From contig CABJBM010000017.1 of the NCBI GenBank assembly GCA_902363835.1, positions 62,001 through 126,000 on the forward strand: a stretch of 64,000 nt of DNA, read 5' to 3'. The position numbers and the translations under genes are program-made. The stretch is from Lachnospiraceae bacterium (GTDB lineage Bacteria; Bacillota; Clostridia; Lachnospirales; Lachnospiraceae). Numbering within the stretch: the stretch's first letter is position 1; each line of letters opens with the position of its first letter. Of this stretch, positions 11,214 to 33,414 are shown piece after piece. The notes below the pieces were generated by a model. That model ran no database searches. It was not told the DNA's origin and was given only the letters and a program-made list of their open reading frames with translations.

Positions 11214-11227
11214 GTTATAAATAATAA

Positions 11228-12070: not shown

Positions 12071-13741
12071 TTATAAAAAACCTCCTTATTTAATTGATTT
12101 AGAAATAACTGACCAACTTCATCGTATCATAATGAGATTTTTAATTCAACATCTTCTTGGATATATCGTCAAAAAGAACATAAAAGCCTGTTTTTCACTT
12201 GAAAAATGAACAAATATCCTATGAATGATCCACTTCCTCCGGAGCTGCAATTTTAAATTTGCTCACTTCTTCCCGCAGCAAATTAGCCTGAGCAGAAAGC
12301 TCTTCGCTGGAAGCGGAGCTTTGTTCAGCTGTTGCTGCATTGCTCTGCACTACCGCGGATATCTGGGTGATACCGTAAGTCACCTGATTCATTGCAATAG
12401 TCTGCTGGCGGGAGGCCTTTTCTACGTTTTCCATAAGCTCACGCACATGTCTTGTCTGGCTGGAAACTTCCATGAGAATGGATGCATTTTCCTGAGCAGT
12501 GTTCATTCCTTCTTTTACTGCATTGGAGGCGTTTTCAACCAGTACAGACGTCCGTTTCGCTGCCTGGGCTGCCTTGGCAGCAAGGCTGCGGACCTCATCA
12601 GCCACAATGGCAAATCCCTTGCCGGCTTCTCCTGCCCGTGCCGCTTCCACAGCTGCATTCAGCGCAAGAAGGTTTGTCTGGGAGGCAATTCCATCTACAT
12701 CCTTGGTGATTTTTCCGATTTCATCTGAGGTCATTTTAATCTCATCCATTGCGTTCAGCATCTGCTTCATTTTATCATTGCTTTCTTCAACCCGCTCAAC
12801 GGTCTGTTCCACGCACCCGGTTGCTTCTTCTATATGAGAGGAGCTTAGCTCCACCTGTGTGGAAACCTCTGTTATTGATGCTGAAAGCTGCTCAATGGTT
12901 CCGGCCTGCTCAGTTGCTCCTGCAGCCAGCTCCTGTGCAGCGTCAGCTACCTGGGAAGCTCCTGCACTCACCTGATCTGCCGACTGGTGAATGGCCAGAA
13001 GCGTCCTGTTAAGCTGCTGATAAATCAAAAGAAAAGAATCATGAATAGGCGCAAAATCACCGGAATACTCCTTTTCCACGGCAAGAGTCATATCTCCCTG
13101 TGCCATATGTTCCAAATGTACGGTAATATCGTCTACCACATTACGTATCTGATTTATCAGCTCATCCGTTGCCTGAGACAGCACCTCCATCTCATCCTTT
13201 GTCTGGCTGATGGGTATGGGAGGTGTATGTACATCTCCTGCTGCCAAAAGCTTCAGACGGGCAGCAATTGGACTTAGAGGTGAGGTTACGCGGGTCAACA
13301 TGGCGGCAAGCACTAAAAGACCGACCACACAGATGCTTATGGAAACTCCAAGAAGCAGCAGTATTTCAAATACCTTCTGTTTCTGGTAATCTGCAACGGC
13401 ATTGTCAATATCATCGATGTAATTTCCTGTGCTTATATACCAGTCATAGGGTTCAAACTTTAAGGTATAAGCCCTCTTTGCAAACATGCCATCCTGCCCC
13501 GGTTTTGTAAAATAAAAATCAGTATACCCGCCACCAGGCTTTGAACCGTTCCCAATTAAATTACGTATGTAATAATCTCCGGCCAGATCCTGTTCATCAT
13601 ACCGTTCTTTTCCTTCGTAATCGGGATTCATATGGACAGCGCATAGTCCTGCAGATGTATCCGCCCAGAAATAACCTTTTCCGTCGCCATAACGGGTATC
13701 CCTTACAATGCTCTCCGCATTTTTACGTGCTTCCTGCTCTG

Positions 13742-19642
<5,901 letters not shown>

Positions 19643-19914
19643 AGATTTTCCGTTTTCATAGTATCTATAATTGTCATCTGACACGCGTACAAGGCTTTTC
19701 ACTGCTGTTTTTATATTTGTATCAAAACTTTAATAAATTGAATTAATCTAATACTCAGGTTAAACCCTACATAAAAAATTTTCATTAATAGAAAAATTAC
19801 ATTGAAATACAAAACACCCACAAAGAATATAAGTTTGCCTCTTACCTGCAATCCATTTCTTTTCTGTTCATCCATGCTGTGCATCCTTCGTAATTGCATA
19901 AACTTTACTTTCAT
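19643..19914 (-). pseudogene. Remnant of a chemoreceptor gene, N-terminus only
   Basis: Codons from 19914 downward match the start of the intact receptor: the order MHSMDEQKR then LQVRGKLI is kept, followed by a similar but altered membrane helix. The frame closes at 19711, and homology continues in broken form to about 19643, where it ends. Ribosome-site bases that are intact in the receptor (GGAGG) are changed here to GAAGG. The Cache, HAMP and signalling regions are absent, so no function is expected. Confidence 0.8.
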
Positions 19915-20158
19915 GCAATATCATATCTCGCCTGGAAAGTTATTAATGCAGCCTTACGCAGAATTGTATGAAACTATTTAACATTTTTCTCCTTCATATG
20001 AAAATACTTCGGAAAATGAATAACCCTTTCGAAATAATCATACTGTATCTATAATATACCTTACTCCATTAAATCATAGACATTGGAACGTACAATTCAA
20101 ATAAGAACATTGTCAGGGTCAAAAAAATAATAAACAAACATGGACAATTCATAAAATT

Positions 20159-20226
20159 AAGTTATCCCAAAGTTTCTGCCCATACTTTAATGATATAAAG
20201 CATTTGCCTAAACTTCGGGATAACTT
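20159..20226 (-). terminator. Second copy of the 17-base-arm stem-loop, now downstream of the catechol operon
   Basis: Arms 20159-20175 and 20210-20226 are identical to those of the 14270-14337 element, and the inner TTTA/TAAA pairing is also kept while the surrounding sequence has drifted. On the minus strand it is followed by AATTTTATG. Being about 125 bases past the dioxygenase stop codon, it may now terminate the catechol operon. Confidence 0.55.
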
Positions 20227-20350
20227 TCATAAAATGGCTAAATATGAAATTCTAATCTTCTTATACTATGCGATCCTGTGAACCGCCAGATCCTTTAAAC
20301 CTGTAAACACTCAATTAGAACCATCATACTCATAAATTTATGTATAAAAC

Positions 20351-21277
20351 TTAAGTAACAACCTGCAGAAAACTTGGAATAAGCTCACCTTCATAATAGA
20401 ACAAACCGCGCCCAAGCTGTTCGGAATCCCAAACGCGCTGGGGGTTGTCGGGATAGGCGGTGTAACCGCCTGCATAGACCTCAATGCGGTTGCCGGAAGG
20501 CTCCCAAAAGTAAATGGTCTGGCCGCGGGTAATGGCATGGCGGGTGGGGCCTACGTCATGTTTCAGTTGATGAACAGCCATCAAATCTGCTGCATGGCCG
20601 ATGTCACTCCAGTCTTGGAGCAAAAATCCCACGTGATGCATTTTTCCGGGCTTATCATACTCCACAAAGGCCAAATCATGAGGTTTGTTTGAGCCGGTAA
20701 TCCAGGAAGCAAGACGGTTCCCATCCGGTGTATTGCATATCTCAGGTACAAACATGCCTAAGACCTCTTTGCAGAAACGCTCTGCCTCAGCAATGTTTGG
20801 CCCGTACAGCAGGAAATGATCCAAACGCTGTGCACGCATTCCGTGGGGCTCTGTGGTCCAGATATTGGGATTATGAACCTGGGGCTGTTGCCGGGCAGGT
20901 TCAACCTCGGCGTAAATTTCCAGACGGTGGCCCGTACTGATAGTAAAGCCGATGCGTTTGCCAAAACCGGGCTGATTGGAATTGGGAGGGACGATATCCG
21001 TCTTATAGCCGAATTTTTCAATTTCCTCTGTCATGTGTTCAAGGGTTTCCGGAGAATCCACCTTAAAAGCGGCATATTCAAAGCCGGGTTCATCAGCCAG
21101 CCGAAGCGTAACCGAGTGATGGTCAAACTCATCGTAAGCCTTGAGGCAGACTCTGCCATCTTCTGTGCGGCATACTTCAATTAAACCGAGAATGTTTTTG
21201 TAGAAATCCAATGTTTTATCAAGGTCCAGTACGCGAATTTGAATTAAACCGGGCCGCAGTGTTTTGTTCAATGCCAT
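20351..21277 (-). CDS. xylE: Catechol 2,3-dioxygenase, XylE/DmpB type
   Basis: An extradiol dioxygenase that opens a catechol ring next to the diol using O2 and Fe(II). The 308-residue protein (start MALNKTLRPG at 21277, AAAGGA 10 bases upstream) aligns end to end in pattern with XylE of Pseudomonas: RVLDLDKTLDFY, then iron ligands His154 (RLDHFLLYG), His215 (KMHHVGF) and Glu266 (SGNRIEVYAGG), each one residue off the XylE positions 153, 214 and 265. GPTRHAIT and QTIYFWEPSGN are also conserved. It is the last gene of the meta-cleavage operon, 105 bases after the ferredoxin. All catalytic residues are intact, so an active oxygen-dependent enzyme is expected, which is unusual in an anaerobe. 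Confidence 0.95.
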   Translation of the reverse strand: MALNKTLRPGLIQIRVLDLDKTLDFYKNILGLIEVCRTEDGRVCLKAYDEFDHHSVTLRLADEPGFEYAAFKVDSPETLEHMTEEIEKFGYKTDIVPPNSNQPGFGKRIGFTISTGHRLEIYAEVEPARQQPQVHNPNIWTTEPHGMRAQRLDHFLLYGPNIAEAERFCKEVLGMFVPEICNTPDGNRLASWITGSNKPHDLAFVEYDKPGKMHHVGFLLQDWSDIGHAADLMAVHQLKHDVGPTRHAITRGQTIYFWEPSGNRIEVYAGGYTAYPDNPQRVWDSEQLGRGLFYYEGELIPSFLQVVT

Positions 21278-21382
21278 TGTTATTCCATCCTTTCTGGGGG
21301 CGTCCTGAAACCTGTAAAACATTTTTATTTCTGCTTTTTTAGATTCAGATATGCCCTAATCACTTGAGATTACCTTGTTTCG

Positions 21383-21706
21383 TCATACTATATTTTCTTC
21401 AAACGAGAGAATCAGGTCGCTTATGGGTTTCATACAGCAGAGTAACATTATACCTTTGCTTTCGTCCTGCACAGAAATATGGGCCCGACTCATTTTTTTA
21501 AAGATATGATATTCGCCTTTTATAATCCTGGCCTTGCAAATACCACAGCCGCCGCCATGGCATCCGAAATGAAGCGGTCCGAGATGGGAGCGTATCATGG
21601 CCTCCAATACGCTTTCATCTTCCCGGCACAAAAAGCTTTTCCCGGAACCTTGCAGGGAAATAACGTGACTTTCCGTCTGCTCATTTCTTTTTTTATCAAC
21701 TTCCAT
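21383..21706 (-). CDS. xylT: XylT-type [2Fe-2S] ferredoxin
   Basis: A 107-residue plant-type ferredoxin with cluster ligands Cys49, Cys54, Cys57 (GCHGGGCGICKAR) and a fourth at Cys90 or 91. The segment KKMSRAHIS, just after the cluster loop, is characteristic of XylT-like ferredoxins, which reduce the oxidised iron of catechol 2,3-dioxygenase back to Fe(II) after suicide inactivation. It sits between the aldolase and dioxygenase genes. The ATG at 21706 overlaps the aldolase stop, pointing to translational coupling; a TTG at 21727 would add seven residues. The presence of a dedicated repair protein argues that the dioxygenase really meets oxygen. Confidence 0.9.
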   Translation of the reverse strand: MEVDKKRNEQTESHVISLQGSGKSFLCREDESVLEAMIRSHLGPLHFGCHGGGCGICKARIIKGEYHIFKKMSRAHISVQDESKGIMLLCCMKPISDLILSFEENIV

Positions 21707-22703
21707 GGTTTCTGAGCTGATGGGCAATGTTTAATATCATATCTTCCTGCCCTCCTATTATTTTTCTCCGCCCCAGCTCCACGAGAATATCTCTGGGCTC
21801 CAGGTTATATTTCTTTGCAGCATCATATACGTGAAGCAGGAAGCTGGAATATACACCGGCATACCCAAGCATCAAAGAGCCGTTGTCTACTGTTTGCGGG
21901 CGCAGCATCAAAGGATCCACACATTCCTGGGCCACATCCATAAGGCCGTAAAAATCCGTATTCGTGAGAATTCCCTTGCGCTTGAGTACTCCGGATAAAA
22001 CTTCAATTTGCGTGTTTCCTGCTCCCGCACCAAGTCCGCGCAGTGTCGCATCAATATATACTGCGCCTGCCTCTACAGCGGCAATTGAGTTGGCTACGGC
22101 CATGCTTAAGTTGTTATGAGCATGAAAGCCTACAGGAATCTTAACCGCATTCCGTACTGCGGTTACCCGGGCAGTCACTTCATCCGGCAGCAGATAACCT
22201 GCGGAATCCGCCAGATTGATATATTCCGCCCCATAGCTTTCCATCTTTTTTGCTTGCTCAGCAATAAGTTCCGGAGAGGACGTATGGACCATCATTAAAA
22301 AACCCACGGCCATCATTCCAAGTTTTCTGGCGGCACTTATGTGCTGTTCACTGACATCCGCCTCCGTAACATGAGTTGCCACGCGAACCGCCTGTGCACC
22401 GCAAGCATGGGCCTTTTTCAGATCTTCAATGGTGCCGATCCCCGGAAGCAGAAGCACTGTAAGTTTCCCGTTTTTAATCACTTCCGCAGCAGCCTGTATC
22501 AGGAGAAATTCATCATTTTTGGAAAAACCATAGGTATAACTGGAGCCGCCCAAGCCGTCTCCGTGAGAAATCTCAATGAGCGAAACGCCGCATTGGTCAA
22601 GCCCGGAGGCAATGGCACGAACCTGCTCTTGTGTAAAACTATGGCGAACAGCATGACTGCCATCCCGCATGGTTGTATCAACAATCCGAATCGTTTGCTC
22701 CAT
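21696..22703 (-). CDS. dmpG: 4-hydroxy-2-oxovalerate aldolase
   Basis: Cleaves 4-hydroxy-2-oxovalerate to pyruvate and acetaldehyde, a lower meta-cleavage step. The 335-residue TIM-barrel shows the HMGL-like opening RIVDTTMRDGSHAVRHSF (catalytic Arg and metal Asp), GDGLGGSS, and the metal-binding GFHAHNN; C-terminal helices (about 280-335) form the part that binds the partner dehydrogenase in DmpG-DmpF. The ATG at 22703 has AGGAGG 8 bases upstream, better than the longer frame. It lies one base after the dehydrogenase gene; in DmpFG complexes acetaldehyde is channelled directly between the two. Confidence 0.96.
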   Translation of the reverse strand: MEQTIRIVDTTMRDGSHAVRHSFTQEQVRAIASGLDQCGVSLIEISHGDGLGGSSYTYGFSKNDEFLLIQAAAEVIKNGKLTVLLLPGIGTIEDLKKAHACGAQAVRVATHVTEADVSEQHISAARKLGMMAVGFLMMVHTSSPELIAEQAKKMESYGAEYINLADSAGYLLPDEVTARVTAVRNAVKIPVGFHAHNNLSMAVANSIAAVEAGAVYIDATLRGLGAGAGNTQIEVLSGVLKRKGILTNTDFYGLMDVAQECVDPLMLRPQTVDNGSLMLGYAGVYSSFLLHVYDAAKKYNLEPRDILVELGRRKIIGGQEDMILNIAHQLRNHGS

Positions 22704-22704
22704 T

Positions 22705-23586
22705 TTATTGTCCTCCTTCCTCAAGCATTTGTGCTGCTATCTGCTCGGCGGCAGCAACCGCTGCTGCGTTAATAATATCCAGATTCCCTGAATATTTAGG
22801 GAGAAAATCCCCCTGACCCTCCACCTGTATAACGCAGGTCACCTTATCTCCCTGTAAGGAAGGAGGAACCAGCAGCCGGTAGCCAGGCACATACTGCCTG
22901 ATATCTTCTACCATTTCCTGAATAGATTGTGTGATTTTTTCTTCGGAAATGCCGGTATCTTTAATGCGCACCATAATGGTGTTGGTCATCAGAACCGGCG
23001 GATCTGCCGGATTGAGAATGATAATGGCTTTTCCCTTATCAGCCTTACCTACCATTTCAATCGCTTTGGAAGTGGTTTCCGTAAACTCATCCATATTGGC
23101 TCTGGTACCAGGGCCGGCACTTTTGGAGGAAATGGATGAAATGATTTCCCCATAGGCTGCCCCTGCCACACGGGATACTCCATAGATAATGGGTATGGTT
23201 GCCTGCCCGCCGCAGGTGACCATATTGATGTTCTGCTCCCCCTTTAACTGAGTCAGATTAACGCCGGGTACACAGTATGGGCCAATAGCGGCAGGTGTTA
23301 AATCGATGACAGTTTTACCTGCTTCTTTCAGTGCGGGTGCATTGATATTTTGATGGGCGGCAGCGCTGGTGGAGTCAAATACGATTTTAATGTCCTCCTG
23401 GGCTGCTACAGCGCGTACTCCCTCAATGGAAACGGGTATGCCGTGAGACCTGGCACGCTTGATTCCCTCTGATTCCACGATTCCGGCCATCATTGCCATT
23501 TCCAGATTTTTGCTGCGGAATATTTTATACATCAGATCGCTGCCAATATTCCCCGGGCCGATTACAGCTACTTTAATTTTACGCAA
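22705..23586 (-). CDS. dmpF: Acetaldehyde dehydrogenase (acylating)
   Basis: Converts acetaldehyde, NAD+ and CoA to acetyl-CoA. The 293-residue protein has the Rossmann opening [14 protein letters not shown], the catalytic cysteine in [12 protein letters not shown] (about residue 129), and [14 protein letters not shown], all typical of DmpF/MhpF rather than the large AdhE-type enzymes. The gene is immediately upstream of the aldolase, its stop lying next to the aldolase start, so the pair is probably translated together as the channelling complex. The product enters central metabolism, so this arm would yield pyruvate plus acetyl-CoA from the ring-cleavage chain. Confidence 0.96.
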
Positions 23587-23626
23587 AAAAACTCTCCTTT
23601 CCCTTTAACAGTTGAGTAAAATATTG

Positions 23627-24403
23627 CTATACAAAGACTGCTTTGACGCTTCCCAACCCGGAAAAATGTGCTTCAAAGGTATCTCCTTTAAAGGCCGCAG
23701 GTGCGGAAGAAAAAGCCCCGGATAAAATCACCTCCCCCTTTTTCAGGGAAACGCCGTAATCCCATAAACGGTTGGCAAGCCATGCCACAGACCGGCAGGG
23801 ATCCCCCAATACATCCCTGCCGGTGCCCTTGCCGACAAGCTCCGTTCCGTTCCGGTACAGCTCCATGGTTACCCATGGCAAATCCACCTGACTTAGTGCA
23901 AATTTTTGGGTTCCTAATATGTAGCATCCGGAAGAAGCGTTGTCGGCAATGGTATCGGGAAGCTTAATCTTCCAGTCTGCGATGCGGCTGTCAACAATTT
24001 CAAAGGCACCTGCAATATAATCCGTTGCCCGGTATACATCCTGGGCTGTAACCCTGCCGCCGCTTAAATCATCTTTTAGAACAAAGGCGATTTCCGCTTC
24101 AATCTTGGGCTGAATCAGCACTTTTGCCGGAACCTCCAGTGAATAGGCCATGTGTTGGAATAAATGACCATAATCCGGTTCGTTTACGCCCAATTGCTTT
24201 TGAATCCCCTCCGAAGTCAAACCGATTTTCTTACCGGAAATAACCCGCCCCTGCTCCTGTTCTTTTTTGACATTTTCAAGCTGTATGGCGTAAGCTTCAT
24301 CTACACTTAAGTCAGGGTCTTCCTGGGTTAAGGGAGGGATTGGGATCTTACTGTACTGTGCCTGGTAAAGTGCCTGGGCAAATCTTACTATTTTCTGATC
24401 CAT
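23627..24403 (-). CDS. dmpE: 2-hydroxypenta-2,4-dienoate hydratase
   Basis: A 258-residue member of the hydratase/decarboxylase family: GKKIGLTSEGIQKQLGVNEPDYG near residue 58, the metal-site acidic pattern IEAEIAFVL near 102, and FEIVDSRIADWKI near 135. Members either hydrate 2-hydroxypenta-2,4-dienoate (MhpD/DmpE) or decarboxylate 4-oxalocrotonate (DmpH); the sequence alone does not separate them for certain. The hydratase is preferred because the operon has a ring-fission hydrolase but no semialdehyde dehydrogenase or tautomerase, so its substrate would be the dienoate. It lies 15 bases after the hydrolase and 40 before the dehydrogenase. Confidence 0.88.
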   Translation of the reverse strand: MDQKIVRFAQALYQAQYSKIPIPPLTQEDPDLSVDEAYAIQLENVKKEQEQGRVISGKKIGLTSEGIQKQLGVNEPDYGHLFQHMAYSLEVPAKVLIQPKIEAEIAFVLKDDLSGGRVTAQDVYRATDYIAGAFEIVDSRIADWKIKLPDTIADNASSGCYILGTQKFALSQVDLPWVTMELYRNGTELVGKGTGRDVLGDPCRSVAWLANRLWDYGVSLKKGEVILSGAFSSAPAAFKGDTFEAHFSGLGSVKAVFV

Positions 24404-24418
24404 ATTTCCTCTCCTCTC

Positions 24419-25264
24419 TCACGCCTTGGCATAGGGCGGATCAATTGTCAGGAAGTTATGCACCAGGGCAGCAAACTCTTCTGTGCGCTCAATCTGCGTC
24501 CAGTGGCCGCATTTTCCGAACACATGAAGCTGGGCATTTTCCAGATACTCAATCAGTTTCATAGAGGTTTTAAGCGGAATCACCCTGTCTTCACGCCCAT
24601 GGACAATCAGAGTTTGATGGCGCACTTCACGCAGGTAAATTTCATATTTTGCCATGGCTTCCACACTGTTTTGCCGCGGGGCTGGAAACATGGAAGAAAA
24701 ACTTTCCTGAAAGCCCGGTTGTATGCTGCCTTCATAGCGTGCCTGGGCCAGCTCAGGCGGCATCATTTGTCTGTTATAGGCAAACAGGCCGATAAGCTCC
24801 TGCATATGTTCCAGCGACGGCTGATAGCCCCATACACGGTCCAATCCGTAGCTTAGGGGGAAGGTAACGCCCATGCTGCCCATTAAAACCAGCTTGCGGA
24901 CACGCTGGGGATGGGTAATGGCAACAGCAAGCGCCAGTGCGCCGCCAAATGAATTTCCAACTAAATCTGTTTTTTCAATGTGGAGCGCATCCATAAAATC
25001 AATGGTTTGTTTTATCCACACATCCATGCCATAGTGAATCCCCTCCGGGCGGTCTGTGTAGCCAAAACCAACCATATCTGGCGCCAGTACACGGTGATGA
25101 GGAGATAAAAGGGGAAATACCTTGTTCCAGTTTGCCCAGGCGGATACGCCAGGGCCTGAGCCGTGAAGCATTACCAGTGGGAAACCGCTTCCTACATCGT
25201 GATAGTTGGTGTTAAAATTACCTGTGGGGATTGATTTGGAAATTTCGGGCTTTTTTTCTGACAT
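24419..25264 (-). CDS. dmpD: Meta-cleavage product hydrolase (alpha/beta hydrolase)
   Basis: Hydrolyses the yellow ring-fission product (2-hydroxymuconic semialdehyde or a 6-substituted analogue) to 2-hydroxypenta-2,4-dienoate and a small acid. The 281-residue protein carries the hallmark oxyanion segment HGSGPGVSAWANW of meta-cleavage hydrolases, nucleophile Ser105 in GNSFGG, Asp226 in GREDRVIP and His254 in CGHWTQ. The ATG at 25264 (MSEKKPEIS) follows AAGGAGTG; the longer frame starting in the regulator gene is not supported. First structural gene after the regulator. Confidence 0.92.
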   Translation of the reverse strand: MSEKKPEISKSIPTGNFNTNYHDVGSGFPLVMLHGSGPGVSAWANWNKVFPLLSPHHRVLAPDMVGFGYTDRPEGIHYGMDVWIKQTIDFMDALHIEKTDLVGNSFGGALALAVAITHPQRVRKLVLMGSMGVTFPLSYGLDRVWGYQPSLEHMQELIGLFAYNRQMMPPELAQARYEGSIQPGFQESFSSMFPAPRQNSVEAMAKYEIYLREVRHQTLIVHGREDRVIPLKTSMKLIEYLENAQLHVFGKCGHWTQIERTEEFAALVHNFLTIDPPYAKA

Positions 25265-25307
25265 TTTAATCACTCCTTCTAATACATCATATTGGTTGCT
25301 TAAGCTT

Positions 25308-26111
25308 TTACATTTTATTACCCATTGCGGCGGAGATGGAAGCGGCGGTCTCCTTGACAAGAGTGATAACTTGCGGAAGACGGTCTCCACTTAACTGATT
25401 GCACATAGCGGAAACACTGACGGCATATTTCACCTGGCCTTTGCCGTCAAAAACGGGAGCGGCAATGCAGCGCAGACCCTCCATGATTTCCTGGTCATCC
25501 ATGGCATAGCCCTGATCACGGACCTTTTCCAGTTCTTTTTCCAGCATGGGCAAAGAGGTGAGGGTATACGGCGTAAAAGAGCGCATACCATGCTGGCGGA
25601 TAATCTGTTTCACGCGGCTTGCCGGAAGATAAGCCAGCAGACATTTGCCCAGGCCGCTGCAATGCATTGGCAGGCGCCGGCCGATTTCAGAAACAATCCG
25701 GATTAAATGGGTGGAGTCAATCTTTTCCAGATAAAGGACTTCTCCGTTATCTTCAGTGGCCAGCTGAATCATTTCCCCCAACCGATTGTTTAGTTTTTGC
25801 ATGTAGGGTTTTGCTACGGCCCGTATGTCCCAACTGTGTCCAATTTGACTGCCCAGTTCAAAGAAACGGATACCTAACCGGTAACAGCCGGTTTCCTCTG
25901 ACTGATCCACAAAACGGTAATCCCTCAGTGTGGAAAGCAGGCCGTAAACAGTGCTTTTCGGCCAATTTATTCTGCTGGAGATTTCCGTAAGGGAAAGTTC
26001 TTCAGATGCACCGGCCAACAGTTCAATCAGTATCAGAGCGCGTTCAACAGATTGTACATGAGACGACTTTTTTTCAGACATTTTGTTCGATTCCATTTTG
26101 TTTGCTTCCAT
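25308..26111 (-). CDS. IclR-family regulator of the catechol operon
   Basis: A 267-residue regulator: N-terminal winged helix (ALILIELLAG, SLTEISSRINWPKSTVYGLLSTL) and a C-terminal effector domain (RRLPMHCSGLGKCLLAYLP and a GLRCIAAPVFD segment). IclR proteins often control aromatic catabolism and bind the pathway substrate or product. The ATG at 26111 has AGAGGA 5 bases upstream. It is the first gene of the operon, 43 bases before the hydrolase, so it is likely autoregulated together with the pathway. A sigma-A-like promoter and a palindrome lie just upstream. Confidence 0.92.
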   Translation of the reverse strand: MEANKMESNKMSEKKSSHVQSVERALILIELLAGASEELSLTEISSRINWPKSTVYGLLSTLRDYRFVDQSEETGCYRLGIRFFELGSQIGHSWDIRAVAKPYMQKLNNRLGEMIQLATEDNGEVLYLEKIDSTHLIRIVSEIGRRLPMHCSGLGKCLLAYLPASRVKQIIRQHGMRSFTPYTLTSLPMLEKELEKVRDQGYAMDDQEIMEGLRCIAAPVFDGKGQVKYAVSVSAMCNQLSGDRLPQVITLVKETAASISAAMGNKM

Positions 26112-26536: not shown

Positions 26537-26740
26537 TCACATAAAAACTCCCGTGGCACCCTGGGAGCCAATTAAGCCGGCTGAGCCTTGACAGCCTCCC
26601 GGCTCAATTGGCCCAGCCGGTCCCTGGGGACCGGTTGGGCCTGTAGGACCGGAACAGAGGACCCGTTTACATCTGCGAACATGATCTGAAGATTCCTTTT
26701 TTAAACTCCCTAAAGAAATATTGATAATGTCGGCAATCAT
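26537..26740 (-). CDS. Small collagen-like protein
   Basis: A 67-residue frame: ~30 non-repetitive residues (MIADIINISLGSLKKESSD) then about eleven collagen-like triplets ([14 protein letters not shown], later GSQGATG) interrupted by EPGGCQ. It starts 11 bases after the end of the preceding glycosyltransferase with a weak AAGG site. It may be a short structural partner of the spore-surface collagen or the cut-down 5' part of a longer gene; the interrupted triplets suggest decay. Its place downstream of two glycosyltransferases links it to the collagen theme of this region. Confidence 0.5.
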   Translation of the reverse strand: MIADIINISLGSLKKESSDHVRRCKRVLCSGPTGPTGPQGPAGPIEPGGCQGSAGLIGSQGATGVFM

Positions 26741-26751: not shown

Positions 26752-27870
26752 TTAAGGATTATCTGACTTTAGCACGGCAGCAACAATATTATAATTGTTT
26801 TTCAGCCGTTCATTATCGGGAGCATATTCAAGAGCACTCTTTGCATGTTCCAGGGATTCCTTCCTCAGCCCCAGCCAAAAAGCAGCTATGGAGCAATAAT
26901 CATCCGGAGTATAGTCCCAGGAATACCCCATATTGACAAATGTTTTTGATTTGTTTTTTATCTTCAAAGCTTCTTTTGTCAAAAAGTATGCCATTGCCCA
27001 GTCTTGTAAATCGTAGCACATTCTGGAAAATTCCACATAGGGATCACGCATATCCGGAACTTCTGCAATGGCTTTATAATACCAGGCATATGCCCCTTTT
27101 AAATCTCCTATTTTATAACAGGATTTGGCGATCCAGCGCATTGCGGCACCTCTCTCATCATTCCATACGGCAGCCGGCAAAGCAAGATATTCCTTAAGTG
27201 TCTCAATACTTTTCCTCCACTGGCTCTTATACATATATTCTCTGCCAAGATAATACCGCATCCTTTCATCTTCCGGGGCCTCTGCTACAGCAAGTTCCAG
27301 AAGGGGAAGATAAGAACCACGGGACTTTTCACGGTCAGGATAATGGTTGAGTACCATGCCTTCGATATATATGGTTTCAAGGGGCAATTTCCCTGTGTAT
27401 TGGAGAAATTCATGAACAGGGCATTTCCAGGAAAATCCCTCACGGCTATGCACCTTAAAATAATAAAATTGAATATCAGGAGTTCCATCTTCCTTAAGGC
27501 TCCAGTTATAAAGGTATCTTCCCATTTTTGCAGTTGGTATGGGTTTGGCCTGCTTATGGTTAAGCCATGTTTCTTCCAGCCTGTTACGCCACCCTGGCTC
27601 AAATAATTCATCCAGATCCGTACAGACGCAGATGTCTACATCCCCGGGAACATGATCCAGCGAAATATTCCGTGCCACATCAAACCGCCACGGCTTTACT
27701 ATGTCCACGTACACAACTGCTCCACGTTCTCTCAGCTTTTCAACGGTTCCATCCTCAGAACCTGTATCCGTAACAACAATCAAATCAGCCTCACTCATGG
27801 AGTCCATCCACTTATCTACAAATTGAACCTCATTTTTGCAGATGGCATAAACACAAATTTTTAATTTCAT
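26752..27870 (-). CDS. GT2 glycosyltransferase with TPR tail (paralogue 1)
   Basis: A 372-residue protein: GT2 domain (KICVYAICKNEVQFVDKWMD, VVTDTGSEDGTVEKLRERGA, then CTDLDELFEPGW with a DxD-like acidic pair) over ~210 residues, followed by TPR-like helices (YYLGREYMYKSQWRKSIETL, WYYKAIAEVPDMRDPYVEFS). It overlaps its paralogue by four bases (ATGA), so the two are translationally coupled. Such GT2-TPR proteins are often found beside exosporium collagen genes; acting on the giant or mini collagen-like protein is inference from position. Confidence 0.85.
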   Translation of the reverse strand: MKLKICVYAICKNEVQFVDKWMDSMSEADLIVVTDTGSEDGTVEKLRERGAVVYVDIVKPWRFDVARNISLDHVPGDVDICVCTDLDELFEPGWRNRLEETWLNHKQAKPIPTAKMGRYLYNWSLKEDGTPDIQFYYFKVHSREGFSWKCPVHEFLQYTGKLPLETIYIEGMVLNHYPDREKSRGSYLPLLELAVAEAPEDERMRYYLGREYMYKSQWRKSIETLKEYLALPAAVWNDERGAAMRWIAKSCYKIGDLKGAYAWYYKAIAEVPDMRDPYVEFSRMCYDLQDWAMAYFLTKEALKIKNKSKTFVNMGYSWDYTPDDYCSIAAFWLGLRKESLEHAKSALEYAPDNERLKNNYNIVAAVLKSDNP

Positions 27871-28985
27871 GAGGAACCCTCCGCTTTTTCCTGTTTTTTA
27901 ATCCGGTCCTCAACCAGAAAGAGATTATTTTGCAGCCTCTTGTTATCAGGGGCCATGCTCAGGGCCTTCCTGGCATAATCCCTGGCCGTTTCATACATAC
28001 CCATATTATAAGCACTGATGGAAGCGTAATCATATAAGGCATATCCCCAGCTCTCCGGTTCCACCAGATAACTCCCTGTATTTTCCGCGATGGCTAACCC
28101 CTTTTCAGCCATAGCATAGGACAGGGGCCAGTTCTTTTCCTTATAACCCAGTTTTACCAGCGCAAGATATGGTTCCCGTACATCCGGGCATTCTCCCAGA
28201 GCCCTAAAGAGCCATGACCTGGCCTCTTTTAAATTCCCTTTTTCTTCATAGCATTGAGCAATAAAGCGCATGGATGCGCTGCGCTCCTCATTCCATTTAG
28301 CTGTTGAAAGAGAAAGATGTCTTTTTAACGTTTCAATTCCCTTGTCATAATTTTTGTAAAACACATACTCTCGTCCAAGCCAGAACGTAGCTCTGTCATC
28401 AAGGGGATTCTCCTGAACTGATAATTCCAAAAGGGGAAGGTATTGGCTTCTTGGTTTTGATAAATCAGGATAATGATTGAGGACCAGTCCTTTGATCCAG
28501 GTGATACTTTCAAAATTGGGTCCGTTGTATTCCAGAATCTCATGAACCGGATGTTTCCAGTGATAGCCATGGCGGCTGTGGATTTTTTCCATGGGATACT
28601 GTTTTCTTGGTGTGCCGTCAGGATTACAGGCAAATGTAAATAAGTACCGCGCACGGGTCTGTTCCGGTCTCCACTGGTCTTCCAGCTTTTGCCGCCATCC
28701 AGTCTCAAAGACCTCGTCTAAGTCGTTTGAAACACAAATATCCGCATCCTCGGGGACATGATTTAATGCCACATTGCGGGCCGTATCAAACCTCCACGGC
28801 GATATGGTCTCTTCATAAACGATGGCGCCTCTTTCCCGAAGCCTTTCAACCGTGTGATCCGTTGAGCCTGTATCTGTTACAATGACGGCATCGGCTTCGG
28901 ATACGGCATCCATCCAGCGGTCTACAAACTGCTCTTCATTTTTACTGATTGCATATACGCAAATTTTATATTGGTTCACTTCCAC
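27867..28985 (-). CDS. GT2 glycosyltransferase with TPR tail (paralogue 2)
   Basis: The same architecture and length (372 residues) as the downstream gene: KICVYAISKNEEQFVDRWMD, VVTDTGSTDHTVERLRERGA, SNDLDEVFETGW and TPR-like helices such as FWLGREYVFYKNYDKGIETL. The pair clearly arose by duplication and has since diverged. AAAGGAG precedes two possible GTG starts, at 28985 and six bases further in; the second has better spacing. First gene of the unit, 47 bases below a sigma-K-like promoter, suggesting late sporulation expression in the mother cell, where spore-surface proteins are glycosylated. Confidence 0.85.
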   Translation of the reverse strand: MEVNQYKICVYAISKNEEQFVDRWMDAVSEADAVIVTDTGSTDHTVERLRERGAIVYEETISPWRFDTARNVALNHVPEDADICVSNDLDEVFETGWRQKLEDQWRPEQTRARYLFTFACNPDGTPRKQYPMEKIHSRHGYHWKHPVHEILEYNGPNFESITWIKGLVLNHYPDLSKPRSQYLPLLELSVQENPLDDRATFWLGREYVFYKNYDKGIETLKRHLSLSTAKWNEERSASMRFIAQCYEEKGNLKEARSWLFRALGECPDVREPYLALVKLGYKEKNWPLSYAMAEKGLAIAENTGSYLVEPESWGYALYDYASISAYNMGMYETARDYARKALSMAPDNKRLQNNLFLVEDRIKKQEKAEGSS

Positions 28986-29031
28986 CGACTCCTTTAAGCA
29001 TTCTTATTGGCCTTATTTTACTCTACTGATT

Positions 29032-29061
29032 CAATATATGCATCTTGCAGCTTATCTTGTG
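29032..29061 (-). promoter_or_regulatory. Sigma-K-like promoter of the glycosyltransferase pair
   Basis: On the minus strand CACA (29058-29061) is followed after 17 bases by CATATATTG (29032-29040), close to the sigma-K consensus mACm, 16-17 bases, CATANNNTA. The last base differs. It would start transcription about 40 bases before the first glycosyltransferase. Confidence 0.4.
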
Positions 29062-29251
29062 AAGAAACAACTTTCATTCTAAAACCAAAAGAAGGCTCAT
29101 AAATACTGATTGCCGGGGAGAATTCCTAATCTTAGTATAACGGCACATATATCTTTCATTTTTGGCCGTGGTTTCCATACATTCTGGGAAACCCATGACT
29201 TTGTCAACACCTGGAACTTGGCCTGGAGCTGTATAAGACTTGTATAAGCCT

Positions 29252-29518
29252 TTATTTATCTTCCAGCAAAATTAAGCAAAAAACAACATACCCATTGTCA
29301 GGACAGGCTAAATTCCTTTTGGATTTCGGGTTATCTTCAAAATGGAACCTGGCCCCATTATGTAAAGCAACTTGAATAGGGAACAAAGCCATATATGCTC
29401 TCCCGCAGAAAGGAGCCGTAGGCGTATTCATTCCCTCACAATGGAATACATCTCCGACCTTATACCCGCACGAACAGTAACCGGAAACTTTTTCAACCAT
29501 ATATTCAAAGCGTTTCAT
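29252..29518 (-). CDS. TIGR04076-family protein
   Basis: An 88-residue protein with the family pattern VSGYCSCGYKVGDVFHCEG near the start, a central CGRAYMALFP and a terminal CPDNGYVVFCLILL. Four or more conserved cysteines suggest a metal or redox role, but the family has no assigned function. Its start overlaps the end of the preceding ABM-like gene by 14 bases, so they are co-translated. Confidence 0.8.
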   Translation of the reverse strand: MKRFEYMVEKVSGYCSCGYKVGDVFHCEGMNTPTAPFCGRAYMALFPIQVALHNGARFHFEDNPKSKRNLACPDNGYVVFCLILLEDK

Positions 29519-29831
29519 AATTCTGTTTCCATAATTTTATCTGTGGTGCTATTGTCATTTTTACGCTTTCAGGATCGAGAGACTTGACAAAAGCTTCTGC
29601 GGCTCTGTCTTTGAACATCTTTTCAGAAGCAATCTTTAATTGCTCCAGTGATTCCCAATGCTGAATCATTATCCATAGATTGTTTTCTTCATCATAGAGC
29701 AATTCCGTATCAATGAACCCCGGCTGCTTAGAGTGAAAATTCTTTTCCAGGCCATCTGCAATGAAAATGAATTCTTTCTTTGTGATACCATCTGCTGATT
29801 TAAGGATTACCAGTTCTGTTGTAATGCACAT
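29505..29831 (-). CDS. Antibiotic-biosynthesis-monooxygenase-like (ABM fold) protein
   Basis: A 108-residue protein whose layout (beta strand CITTELVILK, helix, GFIDTELLYDEENNLWIMIQHWESLEQL) fits the dimeric alpha/beta-barrel ABM fold. The ATG at 29831 has AGGAGG 7 bases upstream; the longer frame lacks any site. ABM proteins range from quinol monooxygenases to stress proteins of unknown role, so no reaction is assigned. It lies between a truncated AraC-type regulator and a TIGR04076 gene. Confidence 0.65.
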   Translation of the reverse strand: MCITTELVILKSADGITKKEFIFIADGLEKNFHSKQPGFIDTELLYDEENNLWIMIQHWESLEQLKIASEKMFKDRAAEAFVKSLDPESVKMTIAPQIKLWKQNYETL

Positions 29832-29899
29832 AAAAATACCTCCTGTTTTTTTACAAGTATAGTAGAAAAAAAGCAGGGGGTATTGAACAAAAGGGACAC

Positions 29900-30370
29900 T
29901 CAACGATAATTATATTTTGTATTTTCTTTTACTGTGATTTTTTCCTGCTGAAAAGTACAGGGGGATGATCCCGAAAATTTACGAAATTCTCTTATGAAAT
30001 GTGCCTGATCTGCAAAGTCATTATCATATGCTATCCCGGATAATTGCTGTGACCTTTGGTAAACCAGTTGATTTCCGGCCCTTTGAAAACGTCTTATAGA
30101 TTGCAGGATTTTTGGTGCGTACCCTGTAAAATAAAGAACATTACGCATAAGGGTTTTTGTGCTTATCCCGTGCTCCAAACAAAATGATTGTATAGTGGAA
30201 TCATTGTCCATTTCTAAAAATTCCCGTATTAGATTCGCCTTTTTTTCGTAATCATCTGTTATTTGAAATTCCAGATACAGGGCCTTTTCGATACTTTCTA
30301 TTATATCTTCCATAGCAGTCTGATTGGAAACTGCAAGCTCCAGTTTCTTTGCCAAAGGGATTGCAGACAA
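29900..30370 (-). pseudogene. AraC-type regulator remnant, N-terminal half missing
   Basis: The 156-residue frame holds only the C-terminal AraC DNA-binding half: DSTIQSFCLEHGISTKTLMR then GIAYDNDFADQAHFIREFRKFSG. It begins at a TTG with no ribosome site and is closed in frame just upstream by TAA and TAG, where full-length relatives continue for another ~100 residues of sensor domain. A neighbouring frame (about 30380-30440) has residues that could be the lost part, suggesting deletion plus frameshift. A functional short regulator is possible but less likely. Confidence 0.55.
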
Positions 30371-30436
30371 ACACTATTCTTATGGAGTAAAATCCGCAGA
30401 ATTCCCCTAATCTGATGCAGCGGCATAAATCGGAAT

Positions 30437-31033
30437 CTACACACCGCTTTCAATGAAGTGAACCTTTGAATTATTCCAGTATTTTTTATAAATCCGTTCA
30501 TTCTCTCCATCAAAGTTCAGCTGATACATTCGGAATGTAACCAGTATATCTTTAGGCTGCCATTGTTCTTCGTAAGAATATTGATAACTCATGCCCAATT
30601 GTTTCATCACCTGGCCGCTGCGGGGATTTTTAACATCATGGGTGGCGGTAATATAAAGGAAACCGTCGTTTTTCAGCTGTTCAACAACAGCTTTGCCTGC
30701 CTCTCTTGTAATCCCTTTGTGCCAAAACTCTTTACGCAGTCCATATCCCAAGTCATGGCTGTCCTCCATACTTACATGAACATATCCAATGGGTACATTA
30801 TCACTTTTTAAACAAACAGCATATTTATATCCGCTTGGATTCCTGTATGATTCAAGATATTTTTTCTCAAAAAATAGTTTTGCTTCCTCTAATGATTTCA
30901 AAGGAAACCAGGGCAAATAGGTATTTACATCTTCATCTTTGTAAATAGCAAACATGGCTTCCATATCATCTTTATTAAATCTTCTTAATATCAGTCGCTC
31001 CGTTTCCAGCGCAGGCGTATTTGTTAATTCCAT
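30437..31033 (-). CDS. GNAT acetyltransferase, RimJ/RimL type
   Basis: A 198-residue N-acetyltransferase: ETERLILRRFNKDDMEAMF at the start, KYAVCLKSDNVPIGYVHV, and the acetyl-CoA loop around GLRKEFWHKGITREA. The ATG at 31033 (MELTNT) follows GAGGGAG. The RimJ/RimL branch acetylates ribosomal-protein N-termini or small amines; the substrate here is unknown. No clear link to its neighbours. Confidence 0.85.
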   Translation of the reverse strand: MELTNTPALETERLILRRFNKDDMEAMFAIYKDEDVNTYLPWFPLKSLEEAKLFFEKKYLESYRNPSGYKYAVCLKSDNVPIGYVHVSMEDSHDLGYGLRKEFWHKGITREAGKAVVEQLKNDGFLYITATHDVKNPRSGQVMKQLGMSYQYSYEEQWQPKDILVTFRMYQLNFDGENERIYKKYWNNSKVHFIESGV

Positions 31034-31301
31034 ATCTTTATCTCCCTCTTCAACTTCTGATCTGGTCATCTGGATCATTTAGCGGGACCAGTTTCCCATT
31101 CCATCTCATTACAGATTACAGAAGCAATTCCTTGATTATCATAATCCTTATGGATAAACAAGCTTTATATGTTCACAACCCCCGATTCATTTCATTATTA
31201 CAAAAATAAAGTTAAAAATAGAGAGCTGAATATTTATAACCAATCTGTAATTCTGTACCTGAAAAATCAACTTCCTGATTTCATTTCTCTAACAAATGAA
31301 T

Positions 31302-32168
31302 TTAATCCCGCTGCGTACACATCATTTCTTCCACTGCCTGTTTCCAATATTTTTCCGGAACATTTGGCCATATACAATTTCCGGTTTCATCATCACACAA
31401 TGACATTGCTCTTTTCAGCACCGTGCTGTGCGGTATATTGCCGTTACGCAACAAATTTTCAGTGACCATACACCAATATGGCGCATGGTTATGAAGTCCT
31501 GATGCACGTATCTCTTCTATTACCCTTTCCACATCATATTCCAGGCTGACAAATTCCTCTTTCCATTGATTGTCCATTTCATGTAATATCAAAAACTGTG
31601 ATTTTCTGTTACTGTTCATAGGGAGTCCAACTGCTCCTGCATTTAATACCATTTTCCCTTTATTCTCAATTTTACCTTGAATATGTGTATGGCCGCATAA
31701 TATAACAGAAGAATCCAGCCCTTCCATAATGTCAAATGTTTTATCGTTGGTTGGAAACAGATTTTCATTTGTTTTGTAAGGGGAACCGTGGCATATTGTT
31801 ATCTGAGGCATGTTTCCCAGGGTAATATTCTGAGATATTGGAAGCCCTTTAAAAAAATCAAGGTCTTTTTGAGACAAATGCTTATATGCATACAGCAAAC
31901 AACCGGTTGTAGAATCATTATCCAGCCATAGGAACCGGTTATTTTGATAATCTATCCAATAATCTTCTTTGTTGCCCTTGATAAAATAACATTCATAATC
32001 AGCGGACAGTGCATAAATTCTTTCCATGGTCTTTTCCGGGTAAGCCATCTCACCGATATAATCACCTAAAAAAATAAATGTTCTTATATTTTTTGATAAT
32101 GCGTAATTAATGCATGTTTCCAGTGCGATATAGTTGCTGTGAATATCTGATAAAACTGCTACAGCCAT
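31302..32168 (-). CDS. Metallophosphoesterase, YfcE/Icc-like
   Basis: A 288-residue calcineurin-like phosphoesterase with all metal motifs: SDIHSN, FLGDYIGEM, IKGNKEDY, CHGSPY and CGHTHIQGK, the last followed by LNAGAVGLP. These bind two divalent ions to hydrolyse phosphoesters. It ends with a ~70-residue extension rich in charged and aromatic residues. RBS AGGTGG upstream. Substrate not predictable. Confidence 0.88.
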   Translation of the reverse strand: MAVAVLSDIHSNYIALETCINYALSKNIRTFIFLGDYIGEMAYPEKTMERIYALSADYECYFIKGNKEDYWIDYQNNRFLWLDNDSTTGCLLYAYKHLSQKDLDFFKGLPISQNITLGNMPQITICHGSPYKTNENLFPTNDKTFDIMEGLDSSVILCGHTHIQGKIENKGKMVLNAGAVGLPMNSNRKSQFLILHEMDNQWKEEFVSLEYDVERVIEEIRASGLHNHAPYWCMVTENLLRNGNIPHSTVLKRAMSLCDDETGNCIWPNVPEKYWKQAVEEMMCTQRD

Positions 32169-32272
32169 TTTATGGTCACCACCTGTTCTTCTGTTCAGGA
32201 ATTGTATAAATGTTTCATTAACTTTTCAAGTTTACTAAGTCTTCCTGGTAAATTGACTTTTTTATTTAAAAG

Positions 32273-32794
32273 CTATAAATATTTACTGTACTCTCCAATT
32301 GGAAAAGGACACTCTAATCCCAATACTCTCGGCCATAAGCCTGTGTCATCAATAATAAAGCCCATGATCATTCCCATATGGCTATGTAAGTGCCTGAACT
32401 GCGCTAAAATCAAAGTGAATCTATTATATTCGCAATCCGGCGGAGTATCCAATAGCTGGTTATCCGTTAATGTTGAAAGATAGGCTTTTATTTTTCTATC
32501 AATATCAGCAAAATAACAATCTATTTCTTCCCTTGAAAGATATTTTCCTGGTCTTACCTCTAAGCTGTTCAAATCAATTTCATGTATATCAGGCTCTGCA
32601 TACCCTTTATCTTTTGGATTGATAAACCATAGATCCAGAGAATGAAGCATATGATAAATATGTTTCCAACACGGCATTTCACAATAGGCTTTATTCCATA
32701 ACTCATCCGGTACACAATCGATCACATTCTTCACTTCCCATAAAGCACGGCATGTCTGTTCTTTTATAATTTCAACTAATAAATTCTCTTCCAT
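32273..32794 (-). CDS. DinB-like protein
   Basis: A 173-residue mostly helical protein with the spaced histidines of DinB-like four-helix bundles (CWKHIYHMLHSLDLWF near residue 43 and FRHLHSHMGMIMGF near 132), which bind a divalent metal in characterised members. Start at 32794 (MEENLLVEI) with AAAGGTG upstream. DinB-family proteins include thiol-dependent transferases and damage-induced proteins; the role here is unknown. Confidence 0.7.
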   Translation of the reverse strand: MEENLLVEIIKEQTCRALWEVKNVIDCVPDELWNKAYCEMPCWKHIYHMLHSLDLWFINPKDKGYAEPDIHEIDLNSLEVRPGKYLSREEIDCYFADIDRKIKAYLSTLTDNQLLDTPPDCEYNRFTLILAQFRHLHSHMGMIMGFIIDDTGLWPRVLGLECPFPIGEYSKYL

Positions 32795-32853
32795 ACCCAC
32801 ATCACCTTTCAAGTCCAAATGAATCCGTATTATAAATATAATGGAAACCTATT

Positions 32854-33312
32854 TTAATTTCTCAGCTTCTTCATTACATGGTAACACAGATAATGGCCAT
32901 TTTCCGTTTTTATGCTATGATATTCCATGGGAACATACCCTCTGTGAACATACATTCCGTAGGCAGGCAAGGAGGCGTCTAACAGAATCTGGGAGTGGTT
33001 GCAGAAAACGATTCTTTCCAGTTCATCCATCATGGCAGTGCCGTATCCTTTGCCCTGATATTGGGGCAATACAAACAATCTGCTTATTTCGTTTCCATTT
33101 ATGCTTCCAGTTCCCATGATTTTGTCGTCATCCCGAATCAGATACACCGCCTCAGCAATGACAGCCTTTTTTATCTCTTCATCAGAATGATGGCAAAGAA
33201 AAAAGTCAACGGCCCCTTTTGGATAATAATCAGGGTACACCGTTTCAATCGTAGTTTTTACTATAAATCTCACTGCATGAAAATGGTCATTGGAGGCTTT
33301 TATCAGCTTCAT
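32854..33312 (-). CDS. GNAT N-acetyltransferase
   Basis: A 152-residue acetyltransferase with the core acetyl-CoA motif RLFVLPQYQGKGYGTAMMDE and a C-terminal YGMYVHRGYVPMEYHSI. AGGAGT precedes the ATG. Substrate unknown. It is transcribed in the same direction as the DinB-like gene with a 59-base gap. Confidence 0.85.
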   Translation of the reverse strand: MKLIKASNDHFHAVRFIVKTTIETVYPDYYPKGAVDFFLCHHSDEEIKKAVIAEAVYLIRDDDKIMGTGSINGNEISRLFVLPQYQGKGYGTAMMDELERIVFCNHSQILLDASLPAYGMYVHRGYVPMEYHSIKTENGHYLCYHVMKKLRN

Positions 33313-33414
33313 TGGAGACTCCTGATATAAATAAGTTTGTAGTTTCAGGTTCTGACTTTGGGTTTTACCCGTAAACGGATCTGCAAATTGAATTTTTAAG
33401 AATCTTGGGTATTT

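What the first reader, a model, noticed from the sequence alone, without database searches (positions are those of the whole stretch)
20351..26111. Complete catechol meta-cleavage operon with an oxygen-dependent dioxygenase in an apparent anaerobe
Seven contiguous minus-strand genes encode an IclR regulator, a ring-fission-product hydrolase, hydratase, acylating acetaldehyde dehydrogenase, aldolase, a XylT-type ferredoxin and XylE-type catechol 2,3-dioxygenase. All catalytic residues I can check are intact (dioxygenase iron ligands His154, His215, Glu266; hydrolase Ser105, Asp226, His254). Meta-cleavage needs molecular oxygen, yet the surrounding genome looks clostridial. Possible roles are microaerobic aromatic use, oxygen scavenging, or detoxification of catechols from plants or host. 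The operon borders decayed AT-rich DNA, which fits horizontal transfer.
Basis: partly seen in the sequence, partly recalled or inferred. Interest (0 to 1): 0.9.

Follow-up and report, generated by a model that had tools for sequence, protein, structure and literature searches.

The report
Oxygen-using catechol operon in anaerobes
A Lacrimispora-like bacterium, presumably an anaerobe, carries seven adjacent intact genes predicted to split catechol with oxygen and likely to feed the pieces into fermentation; the same gene set recurs in clostridia, spirochetes and other presumed anaerobes, and one like it was already reported from a termite-gut spirochete.

Summary
In detail: seven adjacent minus-strand genes (20351-26081) encode an IclR regulator, hydrolase, hydratase, acetaldehyde dehydrogenase, aldolase, XylT-type ferredoxin and catechol 2,3-dioxygenase (C23O), with the named catalytic residues intact. 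The host is Lacrimispora or close kin (RelA 93% identical to L. xylanisolvens). It is not a one-off: a capped genome scan gave 79 loci, 68 from Clostridia, Spirochaetes, Synergistaceae, Erysipelotrichaceae and one Actinomycetes bin; the 65 usable ones fall in one C23O clade, and 32 of 40 with enough contig keep the six catabolic genes in order. Carriers checked: haem-copper oxidase 0 of 32, cytochrome bd 5 of 32, Rieske or phenol hydroxylase 0 of 34, pyruvate:ferredoxin oxidoreductase 30 of 34. The cassette apparently starts at ready-made catechol and runs the hydrolytic branch only, most likely turning catechol plus trace O2 into formate, pyruvate and acetyl-CoA; nothing was assayed. The kind is in print for Treponema primitia (2014; title seen, abstract recalled). 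Added here: breadth, gain, loss and xylT loss within Lacrimispora, and signature residues. Recent transfer from an aerobe is not supported.

The parts
20351..21277 (-). catechol 2,3-dioxygenase (C23O), 308 aa from the ATG at 21277
   Evidence: TIGR03211 355 bits, cut-off 320; nearest solved structures 3hpv and 1mpy; His154, His215, Glu266, His200, His247 in 70 of 70 anaerobe-clade rows, Tyr256 in 69
21383..21706 (-). XylT-type [2Fe-2S] ferredoxin, predicted to re-reduce C23O iron
   Evidence: Fer2 domain; 34% identical to XylT of pWW53; Cys49, 54, 57 and 90 in 58 of 58 rows (2 of them aerobe rows)
21696..22724 (-). 4-hydroxy-2-oxovalerate aldolase (ORF from TTG; a likely ATG lies at 22703)
   Evidence: TIGR03217 506 bits, cut-off 286; DmpG_comm domain
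22705..23586 (-). acetaldehyde dehydrogenase (acetylating)
   Evidence: TIGR03215 422 bits, cut-off 282
23627..24403 (-). 2-oxopent-4-enoate hydratase-like protein
   Evidence: best match TIGR03220, 267 bits, below the cut-off of 409
24419..25264 (-). meta-cleavage-product hydrolase, Ser105/Asp226/His254
   Evidence: nearest solved structures 2d0d and 1iun (CumD), 351 and 349 bits; 58% identical to the XylF-position hydrolase of pWW53; triad
25308..26081 (-). IclR-family regulator (the ORF runs to 26243; start uncertain)
   Evidence: IclR_C and HTH_IclR; 78% identical to the gene heading the L. xylanisolvens operon
20159..20226 (-). long hairpin below C23O, candidate terminator
   Evidence: 31-nt arms, 81% complementary; stretch 20130-20240 folds at -40 kcal/mol, z -6.8
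19644..20282 (-). decayed duplicate of the start and upstream region of the chemoreceptor gene 12219-14021
   Evidence: 79% identical to 13743-14394; translation with stops

Best explanation
Seven adjacent genes encode an intact catechol meta-cleavage pathway, hydrolytic branch only, which likely lets a presumably fermenting Lacrimispora-type bacterium use trace oxygen to open ready-made catechol rings and turn them into formate, pyruvate and acetyl-CoA. Predicted steps: C23O adds O2 to catechol or a 3-substituted catechol; the hydrolase cuts the ring-fission product into formate (or a short acid) and 2-hydroxypentadienoate; hydratase, aldolase and acetaldehyde dehydrogenase give pyruvate, acetyl-CoA and NADH. 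The ferredoxin likely re-reduces C23O iron when it is oxidised, and IclR likely controls the set. Inferred benefit: one reaction removes a toxic phenol and O2 without spending reducing power, and its products can be fermented. Shown: gene content, order, intact residues, low non-synonymous change, one C23O clade across several phyla, and carrier genomes without haem-copper oxidases or ring hydroxylases among those checked. Not shown: activity, substrate, expression, working O2 range, regulator ligand, host physiology.
For: Gene content and residues. Core six genes in the same order in 32 of 40 anaerobe-clade loci with at least 5.8 kb upstream, and xylT next to C23O in 58 of 68. Carrier genomes: haem-copper oxidase 0 of 32 against 7 of 7 aerobe C23O hosts; Rieske hydroxylase 0 of 34 against 7 of 7; phenol hydroxylase 0 of 34 against 2 of 7; pyruvate:ferredoxin oxidoreductase over cut-off 30 of 34 against 0 of 7. 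The two Lacrimispora genomes searched for oxidases (G001, G002) have neither cytochrome bd nor haem-copper oxidase. Semialdehyde dehydrogenase absent from the window and from anaerobe loci apart from a 55-residue weak match, present in 9 of 16 aerobe loci.
Against: No enzyme or growth test. The window's own genome is not held. Cytochrome bd is in 5 of 32 carriers, so some may respire O2. Three Lacrimispora genomes lack xylT, one genome has lost almost the whole operon, and only 4 of 25 genus genomes have an intact C23O and 3 of 397 in the family draw, so it is dispensable. Four loci with full contig room hold only part of the set. No catechol source or uptake gene was found beside the operon.
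Confidence: 0.65

Rival explanations
1. Ordinary microaerobic growth on aromatics: the carriers are not true anaerobes, and the operon serves respiratory growth on catechols at low O2.
For: Cytochrome bd in 5 of 32 carrier genomes, namely three Peptococcaceae bins and two Treponema bins; homologues of all steps are catabolic in aerobes.
Against: Haem-copper oxidase in 0 of 32, cytochrome bd absent from 27 of 32, pyruvate:ferredoxin oxidoreductase in 30 of 34; no ring hydroxylases.
Confidence: 0.15
2. Pure protection: the operon exists to clear toxic catechols (or O2) on exposure, and the carbon gain is incidental.
For: Patchy presence, loss and gain within one genus; no hydroxylase feeding it in the genomes checked.
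Against: Hydratase, aldolase and acetaldehyde dehydrogenase are kept in order in 32 of 40 loci; detoxification alone would not obviously need them.
Confidence: 0.15
3. The enzymes have been repurposed to an O2-independent reaction, or O2 is made inside the cell.
For: Presumed anaerobic habitat; residues next to the active site differ from aerobic-type C23Os.
Against: Metal ligands and acid-base residues are invariant or nearly so; chlorite dismutase in 0 of 34 carriers. Nitric oxide dismutase was not tested.
Confidence: 0.03
4. A recent transfer from an aerobe, an assembly error or a decaying relic without function.
For: About 12.6 kb here are absent from the matching L. xylanisolvens site; decayed DNA borders the operon.
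Against: Nearest relatives in the same genus, 68 related loci, conserved order, low dN, no aerobe closer than 50% in the scan.
Confidence: 0.02

Closest known systems
[quoted passage not shown] title seen in reference lists; paper not held; content recalled)
   Same: C23O and other meta-pathway genes in an organism called an anaerobe. The spirochaete loci found here (Treponema and others) share one C23O clade and gene order with the window.
   Different: Host is Lacrimispora-like. The T. primitia sequences themselves were not identified among my loci, so the comparison rests on other spirochaetes, whose loci lack the IclR gene. The proposed direct alphaproteobacterial origin (recalled) differs from my tree, where spirochaetes sit inside Bacillota (AU p 0.022, group named after seeing the tree).
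TOL-type meta operon (xylT-xylE-...) as on Pseudomonas putida pWW53
   Same: C23O (41% identical), XylT-type ferredoxin upstream of C23O (34%), hydrolase (58%), hydratase.
   Different: pWW53 has a semialdehyde dehydrogenase next to C23O and benzoate dioxygenase genes just upstream; the window has neither beside the operon, and the gene order differs.
C23O of Sphingobium plasmid pANTQ-1 and other alphaproteobacteria
   Same: Among the nearest aerobe C23Os found, 46-50% identity and 48%; sister to the anaerobe clade in the quick tree, support 82.
   Different: Rieske dioxygenase and semialdehyde dehydrogenase genes nearby; the careful tree leaves the sister group unresolved.

Membership tests
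Catechol 2,3-dioxygenase (TIGR03211) | score over the curated equivalog cut-off | tested here: met
   355.4 bits, cut-off 320.2
Catechol 2,3-dioxygenase (TIGR03211) | 2-His-1-Glu metal site and second-shell His, His, Tyr | tested here: met
   His154, His215, Glu266, His200, His247, Tyr256 in the window; 70, 70, 70, 70, 70 and 69 of 70 clade rows. That these are the ligands is recalled from the XylE structure.
Catechol 2,3-dioxygenase (TIGR03211) | extradiol cleavage of catechol with O2 | not testable with these tools
   needs an enzyme assay
Dual-branch TOL/Dmp meta operon | hydrolytic branch: hydrolase, hydratase, aldolase, acetaldehyde dehydrogenase | tested here: met
   (hydratase below its equivalog cut-off)
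Dual-branch TOL/Dmp meta operon | 2-hydroxymuconic semialdehyde dehydrogenase branch | tested here: not met
   no match in the window. The rest of the genome is not held. The 4-oxalocrotonate tautomerase probe matched only its own record and says nothing.
Dual-branch TOL/Dmp meta operon | upstream ring hydroxylase feeding catechol | tested here: not met
   none among the operon's neighbours in the window; 0 of 34 carrier genomes; own genome not held
Anaerobe meta-pathway as reported for T. primitia | C23O clade shared with spirochaetes | tested here: met
   careful tree, 100/100, with other spirochaetes; the T. primitia sequence itself was not placed
Anaerobe meta-pathway as reported for T. 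primitia | host is an obligate anaerobe | tested here: inconclusive
   gene content of kin genomes fits, but the window's own genome is not held
XylT ferredoxin | reactivates oxidised C23O | not testable with these tools
   inferred from position (58 of 68 loci) and homology

The most novel reading that the evidence does not exclude
This is an anaerobe-specific O2-sink cassette: one C23O lineage, long adapted to trace oxygen, that travelled as a ready-made operon among Clostridia, Spirochaetes, Synergistetes and Erysipelotrichia. Changes beside the active site (Ala248 next to His247, and Leu292: 121 of 121 against 0 of 240 aerobic-type C23Os) tune it for low O2 and for 3-substituted catechols from lignin, so that anaerobes earn energy from O2 without respiring it.
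Probability: 0.3. Interest if true: 0.8.

Novelty: new member of a known kind. Interest (0 to 1): 0.55.

Why it matters
Why anaerobes would keep an oxygenase pathway is an open question. The window adds Lacrimispora, a genus with cultured members (L. xylanisolvens DSM 3808, L. defluvii), to a trait that I know in print only from a termite spirochete. The genus also supplies natural contrasts: an operon with xylT (window), operons without xylT anywhere in the genome (L. xylanisolvens, L. defluvii, G051), and a pair in which one genome has lost almost the whole operon next to a flank 93% identical to that of a carrier (G045 against G059). That makes the benefit of oxygen-dependent ring cleavage to an anaerobe directly testable.

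Tried and rejected
Rejected: assembly artefact or lone transfer (68 related loci, conserved order). Rejected: internal O2 from chlorite (0 of 34 carriers). Rejected: a conserved extra partner gene; clustering 605 flanking ORFs from 69 loci found no neighbour family in more than 11 loci, and the two largest were response-regulator/GGDEF and ABC-transporter types. Not found: carriage on mobile elements in the collections searched (no relative in viral contigs; plasmid matches all below 60% identity). Led nowhere: promoter scan (16 found, 16.9 expected in shuffles). Literature: searches listed no report that I recognised of this operon in Clostridia; the library lacks most subscription papers, and I saw listings and passages only.

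My errors: the hydrolase and IclR rows are out of frame and void (repeats their dN; their GC3 values are void too). One search skipped rows because of over-long ORF starts and is replaced.

Rows dropped: one search kept the best 80 of 94 relatives. One search left out L015 (stop inside the C23O match), L070, L079 and L089 (partial) and duplicates L086 and L087. One search used 63 of 86 rows; I left out 23 long-branch, partial or near-duplicate rows. The AU test group was named after the tree was seen. Genome searches used 33 of 68 anaerobe-clade loci (one not held) and 7 of 11 aerobe loci, chosen by me for spread and contig length.
Full report
WHAT IS THERE. Seven minus-strand genes lie between 20351 and 26081: IclR regulator, meta-cleavage-product hydrolase, hydratase, acetylating acetaldehyde dehydrogenase, aldolase, [2Fe-2S] ferredoxin and C23O. 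The aldolase ORF overlaps both neighbouring genes by a few codons, which suggests one transcript. The hydrolase is nearest among solved structures to CumD (2d0d, 1iun) and 58% identical to the hydrolase of pWW53; both act on ring-fission products with small side groups (recalled), which points to catechol or 3-alkyl catechols rather than biphenyl-type substrates. The ferredoxin is 34% identical to XylT of pWW53 and keeps four cysteines present in 58 of 58 rows.

HOST. No whole genome is held for the window. RelA/SpoT from the window is 93% identical to that of L. xylanisolvens (genome G001) and 90% and 88% to the next two among 250 genomes of the family. Large parts of the window match G001 in order. 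The host is therefore Lacrimispora or very near it.

SITE. Window 8567-13983 and 26785-29009 match adjacent stretches of G001 with about 220 bp between them, so about 12.6 kb here (a collagen-like gene, AT-rich DNA and the operon) are absent from that site in L. xylanisolvens; 29010-34055 is also without a match there. L. xylanisolvens, L. defluvii (G002) and G051 carry their operon at one shared other site, with flanks 86-95% identical among the three; no flank match of 150 bp or more joins them, or G059, to the window. G059 has another C23O lineage, at the base of the clade, at a site whose flanks do not match L. xylanisolvens. Genome G045 is 93% identical to G059 over 5 kb up to the operon, but there the start of IclR is joined to the last 42 codons of C23O, about 5.4 kb being gone; the match ends just after the C23O stop, so the other flank differs. 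The operon is thus gained, moved and lost within one genus. Of 25 genomes of the genus, 4 have an intact C23O and one has the remnant; of 397 drawn from the family, 3 have it at E below 1e-60. The AT-rich border at 19644-20282 is a 79% copy of 13743-14394, the start and upstream region of a chemoreceptor gene, with stops, and holds a strong hairpin. Operon genes have GC 0.49-0.50 against 0.34-0.49 in 20 flanking genes; GC3 of the four genes read in frame (0.48-0.52) lies within the flanking range of 0.30-0.61.

RELATIVES. The scan of 84,980 species genomes kept the best 80 of 94 relatives, 79 loci. By their titles 68 are from Clostridia and other Bacillota, Spirochaetes including Treponema, Synergistaceae, Erysipelotrichaceae and one bin labelled Actinomycetes, at 58-87% identity; 11 are from Alphaproteobacteria and Acidimicrobiia at 46-50%. 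Some titles name goat, sheep or water-deer gut; I take many other bins to be termite-gut from their codes (recalled, not in the titles). Records not marked as bins include L. xylanisolvens DSM 3808, L. defluvii and Fusibacter paucivorans DSM 12116. Of the 68 loci, 40 have at least 5.8 kb of contig upstream of C23O: 32 have the six catabolic genes in the same order (20 of them headed by IclR, 10 without IclR, 2 with extra copies), 2 have IclR and all but xylT, 2 have C23O alone, 1 hydrolase and C23O, 1 IclR, hydrolase, xylT and C23O, and 2 are rearranged. Of the two lone-C23O loci, one (L026) lies in a bin that also holds a full operon (L005); the other (L036) lies in a bin with another C23O without the set (L061).

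TREES. 65 of the 68 loci were usable; with the window and two more Lacrimispora-group genomes they make 68 rows, which form one side of a branch with SH-aLRT 100, 16 aerobe rows being the other (loci and plasmid records). In a careful tree of 63 rows the anaerobe clade has 100/100 support on a long stem (1.14) and the window groups with L. xylanisolvens at 98/94. Spirochaetes are one group (100/100) inside a mixed Bacillota and spirochaete group (99/98); three Synergistaceae are one group (100/99) joined to Bacillota at 85/95. Holding non-spirochaetes together costs 26 log units, AU p 0.022 (group named after the tree was seen). I read this as one lineage centred on Bacillota, from which spirochaetes and synergists received it. 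Distances of the six other genes correlate with those of C23O (Mantel r 0.54-0.76 for all rows, 0.44-0.76 without spirochaetes, 0 of 999 permutations as high), as expected if the cassette mostly moves as a unit, with room for reshuffling. FastTree on 361 proteins also puts the 121 window-like sequences in one group, support 0.87.

CARRIERS. I sent 33 of the 68 loci and 7 of the 11 aerobe loci to genome searches; one (L051) was not held, leaving 32 and 7. Two more Lacrimispora genomes (G051, G059) were added for four of the searches, making 34. Cytochrome bd: 5 of 32, aerobes 3 of 7. Haem-copper oxidase: 0 of 32, 7 of 7. Phenol hydroxylase: 0 of 34, 2 of 7. Rieske ring hydroxylase: 0 of 34, 7 of 7. 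Pyruvate:ferredoxin oxidoreductase over cut-off: 30 of 34, 0 of 7. Chlorite dismutase: 0 of 34, 3 of 7. Completeness is not stated for these genomes and many are bins, so absences are soft.

MECHANISM. The semialdehyde dehydrogenase found near C23O in 9 of 16 aerobe loci (one being the source of the probe) is missing from the window and from the anaerobe loci apart from a 55-residue weak match in L007 (flanks of at most 10 kb). With no hydroxylase in the genomes checked, the cassette probably starts at ready-made catechol and uses only hydrolysis. Predicted balance: catechol + O2 gives formate, pyruvate, acetyl-CoA and NADH. Unlike flavodiiron or rubrerythrin O2 removal (recalled), this spends no reducing power, and most carriers have the enzyme that ferments pyruvate. 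The ferredoxin would re-reduce C23O iron, a role known for XylT (recalled); three Lacrimispora genomes lack it, so it is useful rather than essential. Possible catechol sources are O-demethylated lignin or plant phenols (recalled, untested); the former Clostridium methoxybenzovorans is now Lacrimispora indolis.

SIGNATURE RESIDUES. Comparing 121 window-like with 240 aerobic-type C23Os (the listed best 120 of 883, 3646 and 4119 hits), Ala248 (next to the acid-base His247), Ala274 and Leu292 are in 121 of 121 against 0 of 240, Met175 in 119 of 121 against 0; Trp192 (121 against 16) and Tyr268 (121 against 9) are shared with some aerobic-type sequences. The sets were drawn by similarity to different queries, so such differences partly mark ancestry and do not by themselves show tuning.

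NOVELTY. Meta-cleavage genes in an 'anaerobe' are in print for T. primitia: I saw the title in the reference lists of PMC6486533, PMC4824777 and PMC9769757 (passages only). The paper is not held; its abstract (transcripts, trace yellow product with catechol and O2, proposed alphaproteobacterial origin) is recalled. PMC5852087 (passages) reports C23O transcripts in a nitrate-reducing consortium, with O2 perhaps from nitric oxide dismutase. I found no report for Lacrimispora or of the cross-phylum clade, but the library is partial.

Noticed in passing
window 14378-19084: A 1568-residue collagen-like protein ([13 protein letters not shown] repeats; PF01391, 578 bits) lies in the same insert as the operon, with glycosyltransferase genes on both sides of the insert.
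   Followed up: no
window 26537-26740: A 67-residue ORF with collagen-like GPTGPT repeats at the upstream edge of the operon, so the operon lies between two collagen-like sequences.
   Followed up: no
window 13743-14394 and 19644-20282: A 652-bp direct repeat, 79% identical, carrying the start of a chemoreceptor gene and a long hairpin; one copy is decayed.
   Followed up: partly
window 343-6635: A radical-SAM/SPASM protein beside glycosyltransferases, one with an FkbM methyltransferase domain, and a heptose phosphatase/nucleotidyltransferase fusion, next to a flagellin gene; perhaps a surface or flagellin glycan cluster.
   Followed up: no
L032 and L033: Treponema loci with two C23O copies (L032) or a second acetaldehyde dehydrogenase and aldolase (L033) in tandem.
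   Followed up: no
L049: A bin labelled Actinomycetes carries the anaerobe-type operon and sits inside a Bacillota group in the tree: mis-binning or another transfer.
   Followed up: no
L095:9874-10095: A scar in genome G045 where the start of IclR meets the last 42 codons of C23O, a natural loss of almost the whole operon.
   Followed up: partly
window 29010-34055: A further stretch of about 5 kb (acetyltransferases, a phosphoesterase, an AraC-type HTH protein) without a match in the collinear L. xylanisolvens region.
   Followed up: no
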